Of a DNA stretch of 64,000 nt, positions 8,600 through 17,504 are shown piece after piece. Position 1 is the first letter of the stretch. The number at the start of each line of letters is the position of its first letter. The position numbers and the translations under genes were made by a program. The notes below the pieces were generated by a model, which did not search any database, had not been told where the DNA came from, and worked only from the letters and a program-made list of their open reading frames with translations. This DNA is from an uncultured Pelagibacteraceae bacterium (GTDB lineage Bacteria > Pseudomonadota > Alphaproteobacteria > Pelagibacterales > Pelagibacteraceae), in the NCBI GenBank assembly GCA_902618695.1, contig CACNCB010000004.1, positions 1 through 64,000 of the forward strand, read 5' to 3'.

Positions 8600-8827
8600 T
8601 TAATTTGGATTTTGTTTTAAAAATTTAATGTATTTAACAACTTCATTATACTTTTCATCAGGAATATCTTTGTAGCTAGCATTAAATTTACTTTTCACAG
8701 AAATAGCAACATGAGCATAGGGGTTTCTTCCTTTAGGGTGGTTTGGGTGATCAGGTAATTGACCTACCAAATAATCGCCAGCTTCCTGAATAATTTTCCA
8801 GAGTTTACTTGCGTTTTCTTTATTCAT
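8600..8827 (-). CDS. Small conserved-looking hypothetical protein (75 aa); its 5' end is duplicated at 13989-14049
   Basis: Open ORF; first 20 codons nearly identical in a second truncated copy. Confidence 0.7.
   Translation of the reverse strand: MNKENASKLWKIIQEAGDYLVGQLPDHPNHPKGRNPYAHVAISVKSKFNASYKDIPDEKYNEVVKYIKFLKQNPN
8767..8827. repeat. Outer direct repeat, left copy (61 bp)
   Basis: 59/61 identical to 13989-14049, same orientation; mismatches at 8777 (g/a) and 8822 (a/g). Confidence 0.95.
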
Positions 8828-8853
8828 GCCACTTCAAAACTTGTATTATTTCG

Positions 8854-8879
8854 AATATATCTAGTCGTATATCTAGTTT
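8854..8879. repeat. Inner direct repeat, left copy (26 bp) with internal tandem half-sites TATATCTAG-TCG-TATATCTAG
   Basis: aatatatctagtcgtatatctagttt versus aatatacctagtcgtatatctagttt at 13848-13873 (25/26). Confidence 0.95.
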
Positions 8880-9061: not shown

Positions 9062-9283
9062 ATGAGTAAAAAAAATGATAAATTCAAAGAACTAGCTGAA
9101 AACAGAGTAAGAAAAGCTATTAAACTTTTAAAGCTTATTGGAAACTTAGCTAACAAAACTCACTATGATTATTCTTCACATGATGCGAATAAAATAATTT
9201 CTGTTTTAAGAAATGAAGTTAAAAACATTGAGACAAGATTTAAGTCAAAAAACTCAACAGATGATAATGATTTTAAACTTTAG
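9062..9283 (+). CDS. Small helical hypothetical protein, first gene of cassette
   Basis: 73 aa; KFKELAENRVRKAIKLLKLIGNLANKTHYDYSSHDANKIISVLRNEVK; purine-rich SD-like agaaagag upstream. Confidence 0.75.
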   Translation: MSKKNDKFKELAENRVRKAIKLLKLIGNLANKTHYDYSSHDANKIISVLRNEVKNIETRFKSKNSTDDNDFKL

Positions 9284-9289
9284 TAAATT

Positions 9290-9850
9290 ATGAAAAAATT
9301 AAGTGTTATTGAAATTTTATTGCAAGGAATGTTCTCATTAGGGGGAGTTCAAAAATTTCTAGAAACTGAAGATATCGCAAAAAAATCATATAAAATTTCA
9401 CCAAATACATTTTGTTGGAAAAAATATAGAGATCAAATTGATATAAGTAAAGTTAGAGTAAATCTTAATTTAGCTAAAAATAAAGGTTACGTATCTGGAA
9501 ATGAAAAAAAAGGATGGATGTTAAATCATAAAGGTTTAGATGTTATTAATGCTTCAAAAAATAAACTTAACAACGGTTTTAAATTAAGAATACTTAAAAA
9601 AGATAAAATAGAACAACAAAAAGAAATTTTAAGAATATCTAGTTCCATAGCTTATAAAAATTTTATAAACGAAAAAATAAAACCCTCATACAGACAAATG
9701 GAAGAGGTTTTTAATATTAATAGCTATGTGATAGGCGAACAGAGAAAAAGAAGAATAAATAAAGTAGTTAATTTATGTAAGCAGGAATTAACTATTTATA
9801 ACTTTTTAAATAAAAATAAAAAAATCTTAAATAAACGAAAGGAGAAGTAA
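9290..9850 (+). CDS. Winged-helix-like hypothetical protein, cassette gene 2
   Basis: 186 aa; N-terminal part (DISKVRVNLNLAKNKGYVSGNEKKGWMLNHKGLDVINASK) reads as a wHTH; lysine-rich C-terminus; 2 bp from the next gene. Confidence 0.75.
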   Translation: MKKLSVIEILLQGMFSLGGVQKFLETEDIAKKSYKISPNTFCWKKYRDQIDISKVRVNLNLAKNKGYVSGNEKKGWMLNHKGLDVINASKNKLNNGFKLRILKKDKIEQQKEILRISSSIAYKNFINEKIKPSYRQMEEVFNINSYVIGEQRKRRINKVVNLCKQELTIYNFLNKNKKILNKRKEK

Positions 9851-9851
9851 A

Positions 9852-11471
9852 ATGGGTCAGGTTATCCCAATAAAAATAGAGAAAACAAGAGCGGTTGTTC
9901 AATCAGCAAATTCATTTGGAAGTATTTCAGTAGTTATATGGGAATATATTGCTAATGGTATTGATTATATAAATAAGGGCACAAAACCTCAAATGGAGGT
10001 GATCATTGAAAAAGATAAGATTATTTTTTCTGATAATGGAAGAGGTTTGGACACCGAAGATCTTCAAAATTTCTTTACAGCCTATGCTGAAAACAGGGAT
10101 AGAGTTTCAGGAAATTACAGTTTTTTGAGAAGAGGATATTTTGGAACTGGAGGATTTTCAGTTTTCAAAATTGCTAAAAGTTTAAATATTACTTCAGTTA
10201 AAAATAAAAAACTTTATTCAGGCAAAATATCATTTGAAGATATTAAAAAAGATAAAGGTTTTGAACTTGATACAGTAGGTAAAAAAACAGATCTTGCAAA
10301 TGGTACTAAATTTGAGGTGTCTGATTTTTATAAAGAAATTACAAAAAAGCAAATTGTAGATATTAAAGATTACGTTCAAAAACAGATGATGAATGTAAAA
10401 GGTGCTGAGGTTTGGATAAATAATGATTTATTAGAGTACAAAGAACCAGCAATCGAAAAAGAATTAACAAAAGTAATAAAATCTAAAGATACAGTTTTTT
10501 ATGACGATCTAAACGATTTAGGTTTTGGTGCTGGAAATATAACACTTACTCTTAAAAAAACAAAAAAACCTCTTCCAAAAGGAGAATATGGAGTTGCAGT
10601 TTTAGGCGACGGGAATCTGCTTGAAGTATGTTCACCTGGAATAGAAACTAAAAAATATTGTGATTATATAATTGGTGAAGCTGAAATAGAAAATATTTAC
10701 CAAAATTTGGAAAAATTTGATCCACCATTGTTTGATCAAAGTCGACGTAGAGAATTAAGTTTAGAAAATAAATATGTTTTAAAACTTAGAGCTTTTATTG
10801 GGATTGAATTAGAAAAATTTGAGAAAGAAGTTTCAAATGTAGAAAAAGAACGAGAACAATCCAAAATGGATAAAGAGCTCAATAAAAAACTGGATCAACT
10901 AAGTCAAAAAACAAATGAAGTATTGAATAATGTTTGGGATAAACTAAATCTGAATTCTTTAAATAGTCAGAATTTATCAAAAAAAAGTAAAAAACTTACT
11001 GCATTAAAGGATGTTATTACAAATATTACAAAAAAAGGAGAAGACTTTTATTTATCAAATAAAAATAAAAATAAAAAAGATAAAAACGAGCCAAAACCAT
11101 TTGATAAAAAGATAAACAAAAAAAATAATTCCAAAGAAGAAGAAGATAAATCTAAAACAAATAATTCTGGTGGACTTTTAATTAAACAAAAAGGTTTAGG
11201 AGAAGATGAAGGCAGAGCTTATTTTGATGAAAAACGTGCAACAATTTTTATAAACACTGACTTTCCTTTAATTAAAAGATTTATTGAAAAAGGGGATTAT
11301 GAGAATAAACAATTTGATTTATTACTTAAGGAAATAGCTTTAACAGAATTATCTATAGCAATTACAACTATCTTACAAAGAGATGGCTATTACGGAGATG
11401 ATAATCTTACAGCATTAGTTGATTTAAGAAACAGAATTAATGATTTTTCAATTAAATTGGATTCTGTATAA
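9852..11471 (+). CDS. GHKL (HATPase_c) ATPase of the MutL/MORC/Hsp90-like type, cassette gene 3
   Basis: N-box WEYIANGIDYI, G1 DNGRGL, G2 RRGYFGTGGFS, G3 NGTKFEVSDF; low-complexity linker about aa 400-440 and a separate C-terminal domain. Confidence 0.85.
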   Translation: MGQVIPIKIEKTRAVVQSANSFGSISVVIWEYIANGIDYINKGTKPQMEVIIEKDKIIFSDNGRGLDTEDLQNFFTAYAENRDRVSGNYSFLRRGYFGTGGFSVFKIAKSLNITSVKNKKLYSGKISFEDIKKDKGFELDTVGKKTDLANGTKFEVSDFYKEITKKQIVDIKDYVQKQMMNVKGAEVWINNDLLEYKEPAIEKELTKVIKSKDTVFYDDLNDLGFGAGNITLTLKKTKKPLPKGEYGVAVLGDGNLLEVCSPGIETKKYCDYIIGEAEIENIYQNLEKFDPPLFDQSRRRELSLENKYVLKLRAFIGIELEKFEKEVSNVEKEREQSKMDKELNKKLDQLSQKTNEVLNNVWDKLNLNSLNSQNLSKKSKKLTALKDVITNITKKGEDFYLSNKNKNKKDKNEPKPFDKKINKKNNSKEEEDKSKTNNSGGLLIKQKGLGEDEGRAYFDEKRATIFINTDFPLIKRFIEKGDYENKQFDLLLKEIALTELSIAITTILQRDGYYGDDNLTALVDLRNRINDFSIKLDSV

Positions 11472-11473
11472 TA

Positions 11474-13552
11474 ATGTCAATGAGTAACTACACTGAGAAA
11501 GAATTATTACCAGCAGCTGTCGAAGTTATTAATAATCATCCAGGTGGCATAGATACTCAGAAATTAATAAGAGAATTAAGATTTAAACTAAAACCAAATG
11601 GTGAAGATACAGTTATCCTGCTCAACAGATCAGATGATAAATTTAGTCAAAAAGTAAGGAATCTTAAGTCACACAAAACATTAGAAAAAAAAAATTTTGT
11701 CACTTTTTCGGAAAATAAGTTTTTTATAACTAATGATGGTAAAAATTATCTAAATAGTAATAATAATGAACCAAACTTAAATGATGATAAAATATTATTT
11801 AATTTTATCCCTTTGAAATATTTTAATTTCCCAAAAAGATCTACAAACGCCCTCAAAGCAGTTAAATGTGAATATGTATATGATTTAAATTTACTAACTA
11901 ATTTCGGTTTTGATTATAAAAGTTTATTAAAAGTTCCAAATTTTGGAAGAACATCTATTAAGGATTTTGATAGATTTTATTCAAAATACTCAAAATTTAT
12001 TACATCTGATATTTTTGATATTGATTTAGATCATAAGATTATTTCTGAAGCAAATATAAAGAAAAAAAATAAAATAAATCAATTTGTTATCAATAATATT
12101 GAGACTTATGTTTCAAATTTAGAGTCAAAACAAGATACATCTAAATTTAACAATATAAATCAAGAAACAAGAGAAACTAAATTAGAAAAAATTCTCGACG
12201 TGCTAATAAATAAATCAACAAAATCAGACAGGGAAATTAAAATATTTTATGAAAGAATCCTTGGAGATAAAACCCTAGAGGAAATAGGTTTAGAGGCTGG
12301 CGTTACAAGAGAAAGAATTAGGCAACAAGAAAAAAAAATATTAAGAAAAATAAAAAGATCGATCACTGTCAAAGACTGTCTTGAAAAAATATCGATAATT
12401 ATGAGAAAACTTATACTTGAGTCAGATGAAGATTTCATGAAAAAATTAATATCAAATAATTTAATTGATGGCAGAATTACTGTTTATCAATTAAAAAAAC
12501 TTTTTTTACAGTGTGATTTTGAAGATCAAGCAAACAAGATTCAAAAAATCAGAGGTCATTTTTTTGTAGTAGAAAGTGAAAAATACAGAAGTCATCTTTT
12601 AACTTTTATTAGAAAATATTTTCGAGAGACTATGGTAAAAAATGGGATAATTAATATTCCTCTAATGCTTAAAGAAATTCAAAGAAGACAATTTAAAATG
12701 AGCAAAACATATTTAATGAAAATTATTAGTCCTATTAAAAATAAAGGAAATTCAATAATAATTGAAAACGAATACTATTTACCAAATTTTAGGGGTTCTA
12801 AGAAGAGAAGCTGGAACAGATTGATTGGAGGAATTCATTCAACAATGTCTGTAACCAAAAAAATAGATACAGAAGAACTAATCGAATGTTTAAAAAGATA
12901 TAGGAGAATAGATAATTTTTCTCCTCCAACAAAAATATTAAAAATAATTTGTCAAAATATTGGATATGAAATTGAGGATGAATATATTGTAAATCCAGAT
13001 TATACCTTGAACAATAACTATCTAGTAGGTGTTAGAAAAAAACTTTTCCAAATGTTTATCGATAATGAGAGAGTAATGACTTACGAGGATATTCTAGATC
13101 AGTATGAAAAATATGATCTTAATATTAACTCAGTTCATGTAATGATATATGAAAATCTTTTTACACTTCCTAAAAAAGGTATCTATGTACTTGCAGGCAC
13201 AGAAATCTCAGAAGATAAGTTGAATGAATTAGACGAAAAAAGACAATTTAAACTAAAAGAATTAGCTAAGGAAACAGAGCTTAATTTTCATCATGATGGA
13301 GATGTTGTAGTAAAATTTAATAAAAAATGGTTTTCTAAACACTACATATGGCTGAGTCCTTCATTTATAAACCAAATTCCTATGGGCAACTATGAAATAC
13401 TGATTAATAATAAAAAGTCTATAATAAAAATATTTAGCTCTAGGTTGTGGACATCAAATGAATTAAGAGATCTCATGAAAAAGTTAAATTCAGAAACCAT
13501 TTCATTAAAATTGAATTTAATTGAAAAAAGAGCTGAAGTATTAAGTGAATAG
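11474..13552 (+). CDS. Multi-HTH protein: N-terminal winged helix, RNAP alpha-CTD-like HhH segment, sigma70 region-4-like HTH, further winged-helix-like segments
   Basis: LLKVPNFGRTSIKDF (alpha-CTD-like), FYERILGDKTLEEIGLEAGVTRERIRQQEKKILRKIKR (sigma region-4-like); same operon as the GHKL ATPase. Confidence 0.75.
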   Translation: MSMSNYTEKELLPAAVEVINNHPGGIDTQKLIRELRFKLKPNGEDTVILLNRSDDKFSQKVRNLKSHKTLEKKNFVTFSENKFFITNDGKNYLNSNNNEPNLNDDKILFNFIPLKYFNFPKRSTNALKAVKCEYVYDLNLLTNFGFDYKSLLKVPNFGRTSIKDFDRFYSKYSKFITSDIFDIDLDHKIISEANIKKKNKINQFVINNIETYVSNLESKQDTSKFNNINQETRETKLEKILDVLINKSTKSDREIKIFYERILGDKTLEEIGLEAGVTRERIRQQEKKILRKIKRSITVKDCLEKISIIMRKLILESDEDFMKKLISNNLIDGRITVYQLKKLFLQCDFEDQANKIQKIRGHFFVVESEKYRSHLLTFIRKYFRETMVKNGIINIPLMLKEIQRRQFKMSKTYLMKIISPIKNKGNSIIIENEYYLPNFRGSKKRSWNRLIGGIHSTMSVTKKIDTEELIECLKRYRRIDNFSPPTKILKIICQNIGYEIEDEYIVNPDYTLNNNYLVGVRKKLFQMFIDNERVMTYEDILDQYEKYDLNINSVHVMIYENLFTLPKKGIYVLAGTEISEDKLNELDEKRQFKLKELAKETELNFHHDGDVVVKFNKKWFSKHYIWLSPSFINQIPMGNYEILINNKKSIIKIFSSRLWTSNELRDLMKKLNSETISLKLNLIEKRAEVLSE

Positions 13553-13823
13553 TAATTTTAGATATCAATTAGAGGAAAGATTGGTTTATTCAAAAGAGTG
13601 GGCTATTAATTTTTCAAATAAATTAAAACATTTTGAACTAACAGATAGAGTAGAAAGGGAACTTAATAAACAAAAGCCATTTACGTCATTAATTAGGAGA
13701 ATATATTATTTGCCTTTGAATATTTTAAAATATTATAAAAAAAAACAATTAATTAATGAGTATGAATGGACTTTAAAAGAAATTGAAATTTTAGAAAAAG
13801 AATTAAAAAATTTTCAAAAATAA
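13545..13823 (+). CDS. Small basic hypothetical protein, last cassette gene
   Basis: 92 aa, GTG start, overlaps the upstream gene by 8 nt (translational coupling). Confidence 0.65.
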   Translation: MNSNFRYQLEERLVYSKEWAINFSNKLKHFELTDRVERELNKQKPFTSLIRRIYYLPLNILKYYKKKQLINEYEWTLKEIEILEKELKNFQK

Positions 13824-13847
13824 AAAAATATTTATTGATTTATCTCA

Positions 13848-13873
13848 AATATACCTAGTCGTATATCTAGTTT
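13848..13873. repeat. Inner direct repeat, right copy (26 bp)
   Basis: 25/26 identical to 8854-8879; half-sites TATACCTAG-TCG-TATATCTAG. Confidence 0.95.
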
Positions 13874-13940
13874 GTTGCTTAAATTTAATGAGTCTTGAAG
13901 CGATTTATTTTTAATGAAAGTTAAATAGTCCGCATAAATA

Positions 13941-13980
13941 GTGTGAGGTAGTGTCAGGTAGTGTGAGCTAGTGTGTACCT
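13941..13980. repeat. Imperfect 10-bp tandem repeat, four units
   Basis: gtgtgaggta gtgtcaggta gtgtgagcta gtgtgtacct. Confidence 0.85.
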
Positions 13981-14049
13981 CTAGCACCCCAAATAATCAC
14001 CAGCTTCCTGAATAATTTTCCAGAGTTTACTTGCGTTTTCTTTGTTCAT
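13981..14049 (-). pseudogene. Truncated 5' fragment of the 8600-8827 gene (MNKENASKLWKIIQEAGDYLGC*)
   Basis: 20 matching codons, then two divergent codons and a TAG stop; coincides with outer repeat. Confidence 0.85.
13989..14049. repeat. Outer direct repeat, right copy (61 bp)
   Basis: 59/61 identical to 8767-8827. Confidence 0.95.
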
Positions 14050-14060
14050 AATGATGAATT

Positions 14061-14546
14061 TTATCTAAAAAATAAACTTTTTCTAATATCTATAATTTCT
14101 CTGATCTTTTTTTCTTTAATAGCATTCCAAGAAACAAATAAAGTACACAATTGATACAAAGCAAATATCTCATTTTTTTCATTTTGGGATAAATCACTAT
14201 CTGCCTCTACATAGTCTTCAAAATGAGAAATATTATTTCTTGCACAGTTTAAATAATATTTACAAGCATCTGTGACTGTAGCAGTTGACCACCAGTTTGA
14301 GTCTCTGAAAAGATTAGATATTTCTTGATAGAAAGAACTTGTTTCAGAAATAACCAAATCCTTTTGAACATTTTCTGAAAACTGATCTAATTCAAATTGA
14401 ATTAAAGCTAATATCTTTTTTTCACTACTTCTCTTAACATGTAGTTCAATTACATTTTTATATGACATGGAATTAATTTTATTCCAATTATTGAAAAAAT
14501 CGTTTGGTGCTTTGTTGAGATCGCTCACGTTTAATAATATTTTCAA
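14061..14546 (-). CDS. Hypothetical protein (161 aa)
   Basis: Open ORF; stop lies 11 nt upstream (minus strand) of the duplicated small-gene start. Confidence 0.65.
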   Translation of the reverse strand: MKILLNVSDLNKAPNDFFNNWNKINSMSYKNVIELHVKRSSEKKILALIQFELDQFSENVQKDLVISETSSFYQEISNLFRDSNWWSTATVTDACKYYLNCARNNISHFEDYVEADSDLSQNEKNEIFALYQLCTLFVSWNAIKEKKIREIIDIRKSLFFR

Positions 14547-14627
14547 ATTTTTATTGAAATTACACTAAATTAACTATGCCAATATTAACAGTTTTAATTT
14601 TTAATTTTTAGTCTAGTTGGAAATTAA

Positions 14628-16055
14628 ATGAAAAAATTATTTATATTTTTATTAATATTTTTGAATATTGTTAATTATTCAAAGTCAGATGATTTCTTTG
14701 AAGATATAACTTACCAAATATTAGAAAATCAACCTAGATTAAGTTATGGTGTGTCCGTTTCAGATGTAAACAACGATAGAAATTTTGAATTTATTGTAAC
14801 TGGATTTGGATTTAATAATTTAGCCTTAGCTCATAAAAAGGGTATTTTGTTCAATTCAATTAACCAAAGTATATTTATAGACAAAAAACGTAAAACTATA
14901 GGAGTAGCATCGTGTGATATTGATCAGGATGGTTATGAGGAAATATATTTTTTAAATACAGACACTTATAGTGGAAACAAAATATATTCAGACAGATTAT
15001 TAGATTTTGATGGAAATAAATTTTTTGATTTATTTGAATTAGAAATAAACAAGAAAAATTTAAATCTTACAGCAGGTAGATCAGTTGTATGTGTAGATAG
15101 AAATGGAAATGGAGCTTATGGAATATATGTTGCAAATTATGGAGGGCCTACAAGATTTTATGAAAAAGATGGAAATGAAATAATAGACAAAGCTTCAGAG
15201 CTAGGTATTGATAAAATTACTGGAGGTAGAGCGGTTATTTCAGGTAATATTTTATCTGGAAGATCTGATATTTTTGCTGCAAATGAAAGAGGGGAGAATT
15301 TTTTATATTATAATAATAATGGAAATTTTGTTGAACTTGCGAAAGATTATGCTGTTGATGATACCTTTCAAAACGGCCGTGGAACTGCGCTAAGTGATAT
15401 TTATTATAGAGGTAGATTAGATATATTAACCTCAAATTGGGAAGGGCCACATCGAGCATTTGTTTTAAAAAATAATAAGTTTGTAGATATAGCTGATAAA
15501 CAATTTAGCGCCGCATCGAGAATCAGAACAGTAATCTCTGCTGATTTTGATAATGATGGTTATGACGAAGTATTCATGAATAATATTGGCGAGCCAAATA
15601 AATTATTTAAAATTTTAGATAATGGTGAGTTCAAAGAAATAAATATTGGAAATGCTTTAGAAACTAATGGATTAGGAACAGGAGCTGCAGTAGCAGATAT
15701 AGATGGTGATGGAATACTTGAGCTTTTAATATCTCATGGAGAATCTGGTTATCAGCCTTTAACTTTATATAAGGCAAATTCAAAAAAAAATAATTTCTTA
15801 AGGATAAAGCCAATTAATATGCACGGTGCTCCAGCAAGAGGTGCTACTGTTACTCTTGTTTCAAATTTAAGAACTCATTCTAAAACAATAGATTCAGGCT
15901 CAGGATACTTGTGTCAAATGGAGCCAGTGGCACATTACGGAATTCGAAAAAATGAGAGAAATATTAAGATTATTGTTACTTGGACAAATGGAGAAGAAAA
16001 CACTTTTGAAATTAATGAATTAAATAAAACATTGGAAATTAAACAAAATAATTAA
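14628..16055 (+). CDS. Secreted FG-GAP/VCBS-repeat protein with C-terminal ASPIC/UnbV domain (CRTAC1-like)
   Basis: Signal peptide; repeated calcium-binding-like D-D-G motifs (CDIDQDGYEE, ADFDNDGYDE, ADIDGDGILE); GAPARGATVTL...SGSGYLCQMEPVAHYG. Confidence 0.85.
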   Translation: MKKLFIFLLIFLNIVNYSKSDDFFEDITYQILENQPRLSYGVSVSDVNNDRNFEFIVTGFGFNNLALAHKKGILFNSINQSIFIDKKRKTIGVASCDIDQDGYEEIYFLNTDTYSGNKIYSDRLLDFDGNKFFDLFELEINKKNLNLTAGRSVVCVDRNGNGAYGIYVANYGGPTRFYEKDGNEIIDKASELGIDKITGGRAVISGNILSGRSDIFAANERGENFLYYNNNGNFVELAKDYAVDDTFQNGRGTALSDIYYRGRLDILTSNWEGPHRAFVLKNNKFVDIADKQFSAASRIRTVISADFDNDGYDEVFMNNIGEPNKLFKILDNGEFKEINIGNALETNGLGTGAAVADIDGDGILELLISHGESGYQPLTLYKANSKKNNFLRIKPINMHGAPARGATVTLVSNLRTHSKTIDSGSGYLCQMEPVAHYGIRKNERNIKIIVTWTNGEENTFEINELNKTLEIKQNN

Positions 16056-16061
16056 TTTTTT

Positions 16062-16754
16062 ATGAAAAAATTTTTGTTAATAATATTTACCGTATTTTTA
16101 GTTTTTTCTTATAACTCAAATTTAGAAGCACAAGAAAGAAATTATTATCAAGAGTTAGTAAATGAATGGAGTAAAATATTTCCAGATAGAAATAGAAACG
16201 CTGCTGGCCCAAGATTTTTCAAACATATAATAGGCAAAGATCTTAATTATCGGGAATTTATAGAGTTTAATAAACTTTATTGTGCTGTATCTGGTTCTCT
16301 AATAGATCCTAATGCTGATCCTGAAAAAGTATATTTAGAAGAAGTTGGTACAAATAAAAAAGTTTGTGGTGATTATTATAGGTGCTGCATCCCATGCTCA
16401 TGTGATTTAATGAAATATTCAAAAGTTGATAAAATGAAACATAAATTTAAAGATGTAGAAAAAGAGTTTTATGTTTTAACCATTAAAAACCCTTGTGGTA
16501 AAAAAAATTTTCCTAATCAAGTAAATAGAGATTATTTTTGTGACGGTGCAAGTATATCAAAAGATCAAGTTGTAGAACTAAATAATAGGCTAGTTATTGG
16601 ATTATTCCATCAAGCTAAATCTTGTGATAAATCCGAAATTGTCAAAATAGATAATCATCAAGTGACTGGTTTATTTTGTGAATTTAGAAACAATACGCCT
16701 GATGAACAATTACAAAGTGGAATGGGAGATATTTTCATAAAATTGGCTAGATAA
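16062..16754 (+). CDS. Secreted cysteine-rich hypothetical protein
   Basis: Signal peptide MKKFLLIIFTVFLVFSYNSNLEAQ; CGDYYRCCIPCSCDL cluster. Confidence 0.75.
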   Translation: MKKFLLIIFTVFLVFSYNSNLEAQERNYYQELVNEWSKIFPDRNRNAAGPRFFKHIIGKDLNYREFIEFNKLYCAVSGSLIDPNADPEKVYLEEVGTNKKVCGDYYRCCIPCSCDLMKYSKVDKMKHKFKDVEKEFYVLTIKNPCGKKNFPNQVNRDYFCDGASISKDQVVELNNRLVIGLFHQAKSCDKSEIVKIDNHQVTGLFCEFRNNTPDEQLQSGMGDIFIKLAR

Positions 16755-16766
16755 TTTTAGAAAAAA

Positions 16767-17504
16767 ATGAGTAAAGAAAAAAATATTAAAACTTATGAAC
16801 TTATTAAACAAGATAGAATTCTTGGTATTCTTGTTCATTTATTGACTGGATTAGGAATTGTTGCTGGTTTTTTTGCTTTAATTGCTGTTATGAATAACAA
16901 CCAAAAAGCAGCTTTTCTTTGGCTTGGGTTTGCATTTTTAATAGACAGTGTTGATGGAACTTTAGCTAGAAAATTTAATGTGAAAAAAAATTTACCAAAT
17001 ATTGATGGTAAAATGCTGGATAGTATAATTGATTTTTTTAACTATGTTATAATACCATCAGTAATGATTTATTGGTTTAGGTATGTACCTGACCAGTTTA
17101 TTTTATTGATTCCTGTAGTTTTAATTTTCATTTCTATTTATTCTTATGTGAACTTGAATATTTTAACAAATGATAATTACTATAATGGTTTTCCTGCTAT
17201 TTGGAATGTAATCGTACTTTACTTTTATATTTTTGGCACCAGCCAAAATTTTAATTTGATATTTTTAATTTTATTAATATTACTAAAATTTTTTCCTTTA
17301 AAATGTATTCATCCTTTAAGGGTTAAAAAATTTAAAAGTTTATCAATTATTTTTGCGATATTTTGGTTCATTACCTCGATTTTGCTTATTTTAATAAAGG
17401 ACTTAAACATAAGCTCAGTATATGAGTTTTTCTTAATGTTTTTATGGGTTGTTTCAAATATTTATTTTATATCTGTAAGTATTTTTAAAACATTTAGAAA
17501 TTGA
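16767..17504 (+). CDS. pcs: CDP-alcohol phosphatidyltransferase, phosphatidylcholine synthase-like
   Basis: DSVDGTLARKFNVKKNLPNIDGKMLDSIID catalytic motif; NGFPAIWNVIVLY and FFPLKCIHPLRVKKFK resemble rhizobial Pcs. Confidence 0.82.
   Translation: MSKEKNIKTYELIKQDRILGILVHLLTGLGIVAGFFALIAVMNNNQKAAFLWLGFAFLIDSVDGTLARKFNVKKNLPNIDGKMLDSIIDFFNYVIIPSVMIYWFRYVPDQFILLIPVVLIFISIYSYVNLNILTNDNYYNGFPAIWNVIVLYFYIFGTSQNFNLIFLILLILLKFFPLKCIHPLRVKKFKSLSIIFAIFWFITSILLILIKDLNISSVYEFFLMFLWVVSNIYFISVSIFKTFRN

What the first reader, a model, noticed from the sequence alone, without database searches (positions are those of the whole stretch)
9062..13823. Candidate undescribed five-gene system: GHKL ATPase paired with a sigma-4/alpha-CTD-like multi-HTH protein
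Seen directly: five tightly spaced co-oriented ORFs (gaps of 6, 1 and 2 nt, then an 8-nt overlap). They encode a 73-aa helical protein, a 186-aa wHTH-like protein, a 539-aa ATPase with all four GHKL boxes (EYIANGID, DNGRGL, FGTGGFS, NGTKF), a 692-aa protein with alpha-CTD-like (LLKVPNFGRTSIKDF) and sigma region-4-like (KTLEEIGLEAGVTRERIRQQEKKI) segments, and a 92-aa basic protein. Established: MutL/MORC-type GHKL ATPases recur in bacterial restriction and conflict systems. Inference: the ATPase and a DNA- or RNAP-engaging multi-HTH partner form a mobile antiviral or transcription-interfering module. I do not recognise it as a named defence system, and no nuclease domain is obvious.
Basis: partly seen in the sequence, partly recalled or inferred. 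Interest (0 to 1): 0.88.

Follow-up and report, generated by a model that had tools for sequence, protein, structure and literature searches.

The report
Mobile ATPase–promoter-reader gene module
A small mobile gene module in an ocean bacterium (SAR11) pairs a DNA-clamp-type ATPase with a protein that carries the two parts of RNA polymerase that read promoters; the same three core genes travel together in unrelated bacteria across roughly ten phyla, so this is a real and apparently undescribed system, probably used against invading DNA, although no one has yet tested its function.

Summary
Three of the five genes form a conserved core: a 186-aa winged-helix protein (S2), a GHKL ATPase (S3) and a protein carrying RNA-polymerase alpha-CTD, sigma region 4 and winged-helix repeats (S4). 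I found 35 loci holding this ATPase family, spanning about ten bacterial phyla. S2 and S4 are adjacent wherever the contig reaches, in three gene orders, and the three proteins co-evolve (r = 0.86–0.90). A 73-aa protein (S1) is an optional extra; the 92-aa protein (S5) occurs only in SAR11. The window's five genes are exactly the cargo of a 5.2-kb unit flanked by 61-bp direct repeats. A different SAR11 species carries the unit at 97.6% DNA identity between strongly diverged flanks, and one relative has the site empty. The same hot spot elsewhere holds S1+S2 with a different GHKL ATPase, or a Z1/DUF4420 restriction-modification system. S4's most conserved residues are largely those that read –35 and UP promoter elements. 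No nuclease, helicase or methylase belongs to the core. It is not MZA and not MORC. Best guess: promoter-directed, ATP-driven silencing of foreign DNA. Antiviral function is inferred and untested; most loci outside SAR11 lack defence neighbours.

The parts
8600..8827 (-). conserved 75-aa core gene whose 5' end is the insertion site (hot spot)
   Evidence: 80-89% identical copies at the same place, near the amidinotransferase gene, in most of the SAR11 relatives compared
8767..8827 (+). left 61-bp direct repeat (att-like)
   Evidence: 97% identical to 13989-14049
8841..8879 (+). left copy of a terminal repeat (CTAGTCGTATATCTAGTTT core)
   Evidence: 87% identical to 13835-13873; the core occurs only twice in the genome
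9062..9283 (+). S1, 73-aa helical accessory protein
   Evidence: homologues in 10 of 36 sets incl. the window, 28-59% identity; also beside a different GHKL ATPase in L080 and L081
9290..9850 (+). S2, 186-aa winged-helix core protein
   Evidence: next to S3 in every locus where the contig permits; AF2 pLDDT 91.6
9852..11471 (+). S3, 539-aa GHKL ATPase (core)
   Evidence: Pfam HATPase_c_3; invariant catalytic Glu31 and all ATP motifs in 32 homologues
11474..13552 (+). S4, 692-aa promoter-reader-like core protein
   Evidence: Sigma70_r4 in 27/28 and alpha-CTD in 24/28 homologues
11807..11983 (+). S4 alpha-CTD-like helix-hairpin-helix domain (residues ~112-170)
   Evidence: R122 26/28, N125 19/28, G158 27/28 conserved
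12176..12373 (+). S4 sigma region 4 (residues ~235-300)
   Evidence: R279 28/28, E280 26/28, R281 27/28, R283 26/28, Q284 28/28; Foldseek matches to sigma region 4 structures
12401..13543 (+). S4 winged-helix repeats (about residues 310-580) and C-terminal beta domain (600-690)
   Evidence: AF2 secondary structure, pLDDT mostly 75-95
13545..13823 (+). S5, 92-aa basic protein, SAR11-specific
   Evidence: found only in the window, L032 and L046
13835..13873 (+). right copy of the terminal repeat
13940..13976 (+). 10-bp iterons AGTGTSAGNT beside the right end
   Evidence: 3 overlapping matches, 0.01 expected; also at the ends of the L032 and L080 units
13989..14049 (+). right 61-bp direct repeat (copy of the 5' end of the 75-aa gene)

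Best explanation
A mobile, nuclease-free conflict module that acts at promoters. S4 carries the two DNA-reading parts of RNA polymerase, alpha-CTD (UP element) and sigma region 4 (-35 element), without the parts needed to start transcription. I propose that it marks sigma-70-type promoters on incoming or highly transcribed foreign DNA. S2, a winged-helix adaptor, and S4 then guide the S3 GHKL dimer, which closes round the DNA on ATP binding, as MutL, gyrase and MORC ATPases do, and blocks or compacts the promoter region so that phage or plasmid genes are not expressed. Shown here: gene linkage, co-evolution, ATPase motifs, domain content, retention of promoter-reading residues, mobility. Inferred: complex formation, promoter binding, clamp closure, silencing, the antiviral role, and how self is told from non-self.
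For: Linkage: S2-S3-S4 adjacent in 32 of 32 loci where S4 could be checked (31 by HMM, plus L041 with a frameshifted S4), in three gene orders and with gaps typical of operons; distance matrices correlate at 0.86-0.90, 0 of 2000 permutations as high. Promoter reading: among the 14 most conserved columns of S4, 7 are alpha-CTD/sigma-4.2 positions equivalent by alignment to RpoA R265 and G296 and RpoD R584, E585, R586, R588 and Q589 (numbering from general knowledge); Foldseek gives sigma region 4 structures including the -35 DNA complex 1ku7. ATPase: catalytic Glu and all motifs invariant. Conflict-type behaviour: 97.6% identical unit in another species between diverged flanks, 61-bp bracketing repeats, empty site in G082, the same hot spot holding a Z1/DUF4420/Dcm/HNH system, a tRNA island in L046, and Dcm, Eco29kI-like nuclease, resolvase and integrase round L039.
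Against: No phage challenge or biochemistry exists. Most loci outside SAR11 lie among metabolic genes: of 121 neighbour proteins scanned, defence models matched only a few. In some lineages the place looks stable: L050 and L061 share neighbours, as do L054 and L055. Sigma region 4 and alpha-CTD could bind RNA polymerase instead of acting as free promoter readers. Nothing explains how the host's own promoters escape. The S4 model has mean pLDDT 71 and its N-terminal 100 residues are not reliably modelled.
Confidence: 0.4

Rival explanations
1. Transcription-machinery switch: S4 docks on RNA polymerase (beta-flap through sigma region 4, alpha-CTD contacts) and, driven by the S3 ATPase, reprograms or shuts down host transcription, for example as abortive infection or a stress response.
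For: S4 contains both RNAP promoter-contact modules; no conserved nuclease motif seen in the core.
Against: The conserved residues are DNA-reading ones; conservation of the flap-binding surface was not tested. No toxin-like component is evident.
Confidence: 0.22
2. Restriction accessory: like MORC and paraMORC proteins, the GHKL ATPase and its DNA readers work with a nuclease supplied in trans by the host or a neighbouring R-M system.
For: Dcm and Eco29kI-like nuclease next to L039, a DNA methylase-like ORF next to L040, and a Z1/DUF4420 R-M system in the same SAR11 hot spot in another genome.
Against: No nuclease, helicase or methylase is conserved with the core in 35 loci.
Confidence: 0.18
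3. Element maintenance: the genes serve the mobile unit itself (integration, excision or silencing of its own or competing elements).
For: In the window and L032 the unit contains nothing else between its repeats.
Against: The same repeats and iterons bracket a unit with a different GHKL ATPase and no S4 (L080), and other SAR11 genomes have repeat pairs round unrelated cargo. L039 has its own integrase. Many loci show no mobile-element ends.
Confidence: 0.1
4. Regulatory GHKL kinase pair like CapK-CapS, controlling a neighbouring immune operon.
For: GHKL plus winged-helix pair; CapK-CapS is described as such a pair (PMC13373217).
Against: S3 has the catalytic Glu of ATPases (E31 32/32), no STAS domain was detected in any partner, and there is no conserved downstream operon.
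Confidence: 0.04

Closest known systems
MZA (mzaABCDE) anti-phage system
   Same: Pairs a sigma-70-family protein (MzaA) with a GHKL/MutL-like ATPase (MzaB).
   Different: The NCBIfam MzaA model aligns along positions ~230-720 with full-length housekeeping sigma factors in 398 of 399 genomes, so MzaA is a whole sigma factor. S4 has only region 4, plus alpha-CTD and winged helices, and matches MzaA over 60 residues only. No Z1, DUF4420 or AIPR gene is in the core.
Prokaryotic MORC / paraMORC restriction-modification systems (Iyer et al. 2008, PMC2292703)
   Same: GHKL ATPase, here about 540 aa, with a likely S5 domain; sporadic, laterally mobile.
   Different: The MORC signature GhXhhpXXRhl is absent in 32 of 32 S3 proteins; no helicase, nuclease or methylase partner; promoter-reading partner instead.
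GHKL-type Shedu (VcSduA, PMC12137116)
   Same: GHKL ATPase in a mobile defence setting.
   Different: VcSduA has a fused PD-(D/E)xK nuclease; no nuclease domain was found in S3.
CapK-CapS immune regulators (PMC13373217)
   Same: GHKL protein with a winged-helix partner near immune genes.
   Different: Kinase with STAS domains that controls a neighbouring operon; S3 is ATPase-type and no target operon is conserved.
SAR11 sister cassette S1-S2-GHKL2 (L080, L081; found here)
   Same: Homologous S1 and S2; L080 lies in the same hot spot with the same repeats.
   Different: A 759-762-aa GHKL protein only remotely related to S3, and no S4.

Membership tests
MZA system | MzaA-type full sigma factor (regions 2-4) | tested here: not met
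   S4 aligns only over region 4 (E 7.5e-6, far below the curated cut-off) while the model spans whole RpoD proteins
MZA system | MzaB GHKL protein | tested here: not met
   S3 of the window has no MzaB match up to E 1; one homologue reaches only 0.015
MZA system | Z1, DUF4420 and AIPR partners | tested here: not met
   No fourth gene family of this kind is conserved next to the core in 35 loci
MORC family | GhXhhpXXRhl motif in the S5 domain | tested here: not met
   0 of 32 (motif from PMC2292703)
GHKL ATPase superfamily | N, G1, G2 and G3 boxes with catalytic Glu | tested here: met
   Invariant in 32 homologues; Pfam HATPase_c_3 above cut-off
MORC/paraMORC R-M systems | associated helicase, nuclease or methylase | tested here: not met
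sigma-70 factor | regions 2 and 3 (-10 binding, core RNAP binding) | tested here: not met
   Only Sigma70_r4 (27/28) and alpha-CTD (24/28) are found widely; Sigma70_r3 in a single member
sigma-70 region 4 / alpha-CTD domains | DNA-reading residues retained | tested here: met
anti-phage defence system | protection against phage | not testable with these tools
   needs experiment
anti-phage defence system | enrichment beside known defence genes | tested here: inconclusive
   Clear in the SAR11 hot spot and L039, absent in most loci; no matched background was run
mobile genetic unit | bracketing repeats, empty site, transfer between species | tested here: met
CapK-CapS-type kinase pair | STAS-domain substrate, kinase-type GHKL | tested here: not met
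   No STAS match; ATPase-type catalytic Glu invariant

The most novel reading that the evidence does not exclude
A new class of bacterial immunity that recognises invaders by their promoters: a decoy polymerase fragment (alpha-CTD + sigma region 4) loads a MORC-like ATPase clamp onto active foreign promoters and silences them without cutting DNA, a bacterial counterpart of MORC-based transposon silencing.
Probability: 0.3. Interest if true: 0.92.

Novelty: new variant of a known kind. Interest (0 to 1): 0.72.

Why it matters
GHKL-based conflict systems described in the papers I read mostly carry nucleases, helicases or methylases, while eukaryotic MORC proteins silence transposons without cutting DNA. 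A mobile bacterial module that pairs a GHKL ATPase with the promoter-reading parts of RNA polymerase, and has no nuclease, would be a candidate for non-cleaving silencing of foreign genes in bacteria and would make that idea directly testable. It also gives the very abundant, streamlined SAR11 bacteria a compact candidate defence islet with defined ends, and a hot spot where further defence cassettes can be looked for.

Tried and rejected
Viral contigs: four scans with S3 or S4 queries found no relative, and tblastn in phage genomes found nothing for S3 and only sigma or HTH fragments for S4, so it is not known phage cargo. Plasmids: only a remote GHKL protein in Rhizobium with no S4-like neighbour recognised. 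The hit to a 5.8-kb Paracoccus plasmid covers only S4's N-terminal part. The apparent two Alphaproteobacterial hits are one contig binned twice. Searching with the MzaA model returned only housekeeping sigma factors, none over its cut-off, useful only to show that MzaA is a whole sigma factor. Foldseek of S2 gave only generic winged-helix proteins, E > 0.01, in the PDB and viral libraries. The extra S4 hit upstream in L046 is, by its position after dnaG and its length, rpoD. A search for the sister GHKL2 in 289 Alphaproteobacteria found nothing. Literature searches found no description of a GHKL + alpha-CTD/sigma-4 system, but only open-licence papers are held.

Full report
WHAT IS THERE. The window lies in a 1.2-Mb SAR11-type (Pelagibacteraceae) genome in 35 contigs (lineage inferred from the near relatives AG-919-A02 and AG-905-K02). 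Between 9062 and 13823 five co-directed ORFs stand as reported, with gaps of 6, 1 and 2 nt and an 8-nt overlap. I call them S1 (73 aa), S2 (186 aa), S3 (539 aa), S4 (692 aa) and S5 (92 aa). S3 matches HATPase_c_3 (E 2.8e-8); S4 matches Sigma70_r4 (6.8e-9) and RNA_pol_A_CTD (6e-5); S1, S2 and S5 match no family convincingly. None of the five matches a PADLOC model beyond weak partial hits; the best, MzaA at 1.8e-5, covers sigma region 4 only.

CONSERVED CO-OCCURRENCE. Searching 386 Alphaproteobacterial genomes gave one further full-length cassette, which let me build an alignment and scan one genome for each of 85,462 species. The scan returned 35 loci carrying an S3 relative, in records titled as Pelagibacteraceae, other Alpha-, Gamma- and Deltaproteobacteria, Myxococcales, Acidobacteria, Verrucomicrobia, Chloroflexi, Poribacteria, Bacteroidales, Bacillota, Actinomycetes, Gemmatimonadetes, Atribacteria and Parcubacteria; most are metagenome bins or single-cell genomes, one is a named isolate (Allopontixanthobacter, L039). 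L033 and L065 are one contig binned twice. Iterated HMM searches of the ORFs found S2 in 33 of the 35 and S4 in 31. The exceptions are explained: L041 has S4 split by a frameshift, and L044, L048, L053 and L055 end at or near the cassette. Three arrangements occur: S2-S3-S4, S4-S2-S3 and divergent S4/S2-S3. No other gene family recurs beside them in more than four loci. Pairwise distance matrices of the three proteins correlate at 0.86-0.90, with 0 of 2000 permutations as high. S1 is present in 10 of 36 sets including the window, S5 only in SAR11. The core is therefore three genes.

It is rare. The S2 profile found no other carrier among 299 sampled Pseudomonadota and only two divergent relatives among 296 Pelagibacteraceae. 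S4 itself was not found in 150 relatives; only ordinary sigma factors matched. The scan used two short peptide patterns, so 35 is a lower bound.

MOBILITY. A 61-bp direct repeat brackets the cassette (8767-8827 and 13989-14049, 97% identical). It is the 5' end of a conserved 75-aa gene, so the unit sits in the start of that gene and keeps it whole. A 39-bp repeat lies just inside both ends, and its core occurs nowhere else in the genome. 10-bp iterons lie beside the right repeat; they recur at the ends of the L032 and L080 units. AG-919-A02 (L032), a different SAR11 species, carries the same unit at 97.6% DNA identity, whereas the aligned upstream flank is 60-87% identical and the immediate downstream flank is unrelated. 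G082 has the site without the unit and with a single repeat copy. L046 carries the cassette in a 9.2-kb island between a partial and an intact tRNA-Met. L039 has a C5 methylase and an Eco29kI-like nuclease upstream, and a resolvase and integrase downstream next to tRNA-Leu. The SAR11 unit has no recombinase of its own.

THE HOT SPOT. In G1013 (L080) the same site, with the same repeats, holds S1 and S2 with a different 759-aa GHKL protein and no S4; G1106 (L081) has this sister set elsewhere. In G441 (L091) the region beyond the 75-aa gene holds Z1, DUF4420, two C5 methylases and an HNH nuclease, a restriction-modification system of the Z1 kind. Other SAR11 genomes have a second repeat copy round unrelated cargo (L084, L086). 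So S1-S2 looks like a shared front end for different GHKL ATPases, and the site is a general landing place that also takes defence genes.

HOW IT MAY WORK. S3 has the invariant glutamate of ATP-hydrolysing GHKL proteins and all nucleotide motifs. S4 keeps alpha-CTD in 24 and sigma region 4 in 27 of 28 homologues. Although the homologues are only 13-23% identical to the window protein, the positions aligned with RpoA R265 and G296 and with RpoD R584, E585, R586, R588 and Q589 are conserved in 26-28 of 28 (equivalence by alignment and general knowledge of these proteins). Sigma regions 2 and 3 are missing. The AF2 model of S4 (mean pLDDT 71) shows helix-hairpin-helix, sigma-4, a row of winged helices and a C-terminal beta domain (domain reading from its secondary structure is mine); Foldseek returns sigma region 4 structures, including the one bound to -35 DNA, with high probability but E above 0.1 because the match is short. 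S2 is a confident winged helix plus helical domain. No conserved nuclease-like acidic/lysine set stands out in S2 or S4, and in S3 many of the conserved polar residues are the ATP motifs. The simplest reading is a promoter-reading guide (S4), an adaptor (S2) and an ATP-driven clamp (S3). The step from there to silencing of foreign promoters is inference. The main rivals are an RNA-polymerase switch and a restriction accessory.

WHAT SPEAKS AGAINST DEFENCE. Of 121 neighbour proteins, few match defence models; most are metabolic. In some Chloroflexi and Poribacteria the place is shared by related genomes, suggesting long retention. I ran no matched background, so enrichment is neither shown nor excluded.

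MEMBERSHIP AND NOVELTY. It is not MZA: MzaA is a full sigma factor, MzaB does not match the window's S3, and Z1, DUF4420 and AIPR are absent from the core. It is not MORC: the signature motif is absent in 32 of 32. I found no description in the held literature, which lacks most subscription papers. As a GHKL-centred conflict module it is a new variant of a known kind; if promoter-directed silencing were shown it would be categorically new.

Noticed in passing
L080:5940-9737 and L081:6779-9880: Sister cassette: S1 and S2 homologues followed by a 759-762-aa GHKL protein (28% identical to each other, no Pfam domain in L080) and no S4; L080 lies in the same hot spot with the same repeats. A second undescribed GHKL set.
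   Followed up: partly
L091:4449-11668: The same SAR11 hot-spot region in another genome holds Z1, DUF4420, two C5 methylases and an HNH nuclease (Z1-type restriction-modification).
   Followed up: partly
L084:2351-4634, L086:2416-3769: Second copies of the 61-bp repeat bracket unrelated short cargo, so this gene start is a general integration hot spot in SAR11 with no visible recombinase.
   Followed up: partly
window 13940-13976; L032 ~14089; L080 6024: 10-bp iterons AGTGTSAGNT at one end of three units carrying two different cassettes; perhaps recombinase-binding sites.
   Followed up: partly
window 14061-17504: A further stretch beyond the right repeat (161-aa ORF, FG-GAP protein, 230-aa protein, CDP-alcohol phosphatidyltransferase); the last gene is absent from 7 of 8 relatives checked, so this is probably another variable insert.
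   Followed up: partly
L046:8451-17689: tRNA-Met island with the cassette, a 130-aa protein, S5, a 124-aa protein and a 699-aa leucine-rich-repeat protein.
   Followed up: partly
L033 / L065 (G371:C596, G284:C55): Identical 7.8-kb sequence in two different bins: contamination in one of the two genomes.
   Followed up: yes
L041:4060-7156: S4 is split by a frameshift; decayed gene or sequencing error.
   Followed up: partly
L025:7932-10610: Rhizobium plasmid pRlX5 carries a more distant GHKL protein with a 360-aa partner of unknown family, possibly a separate system.
   Followed up: no
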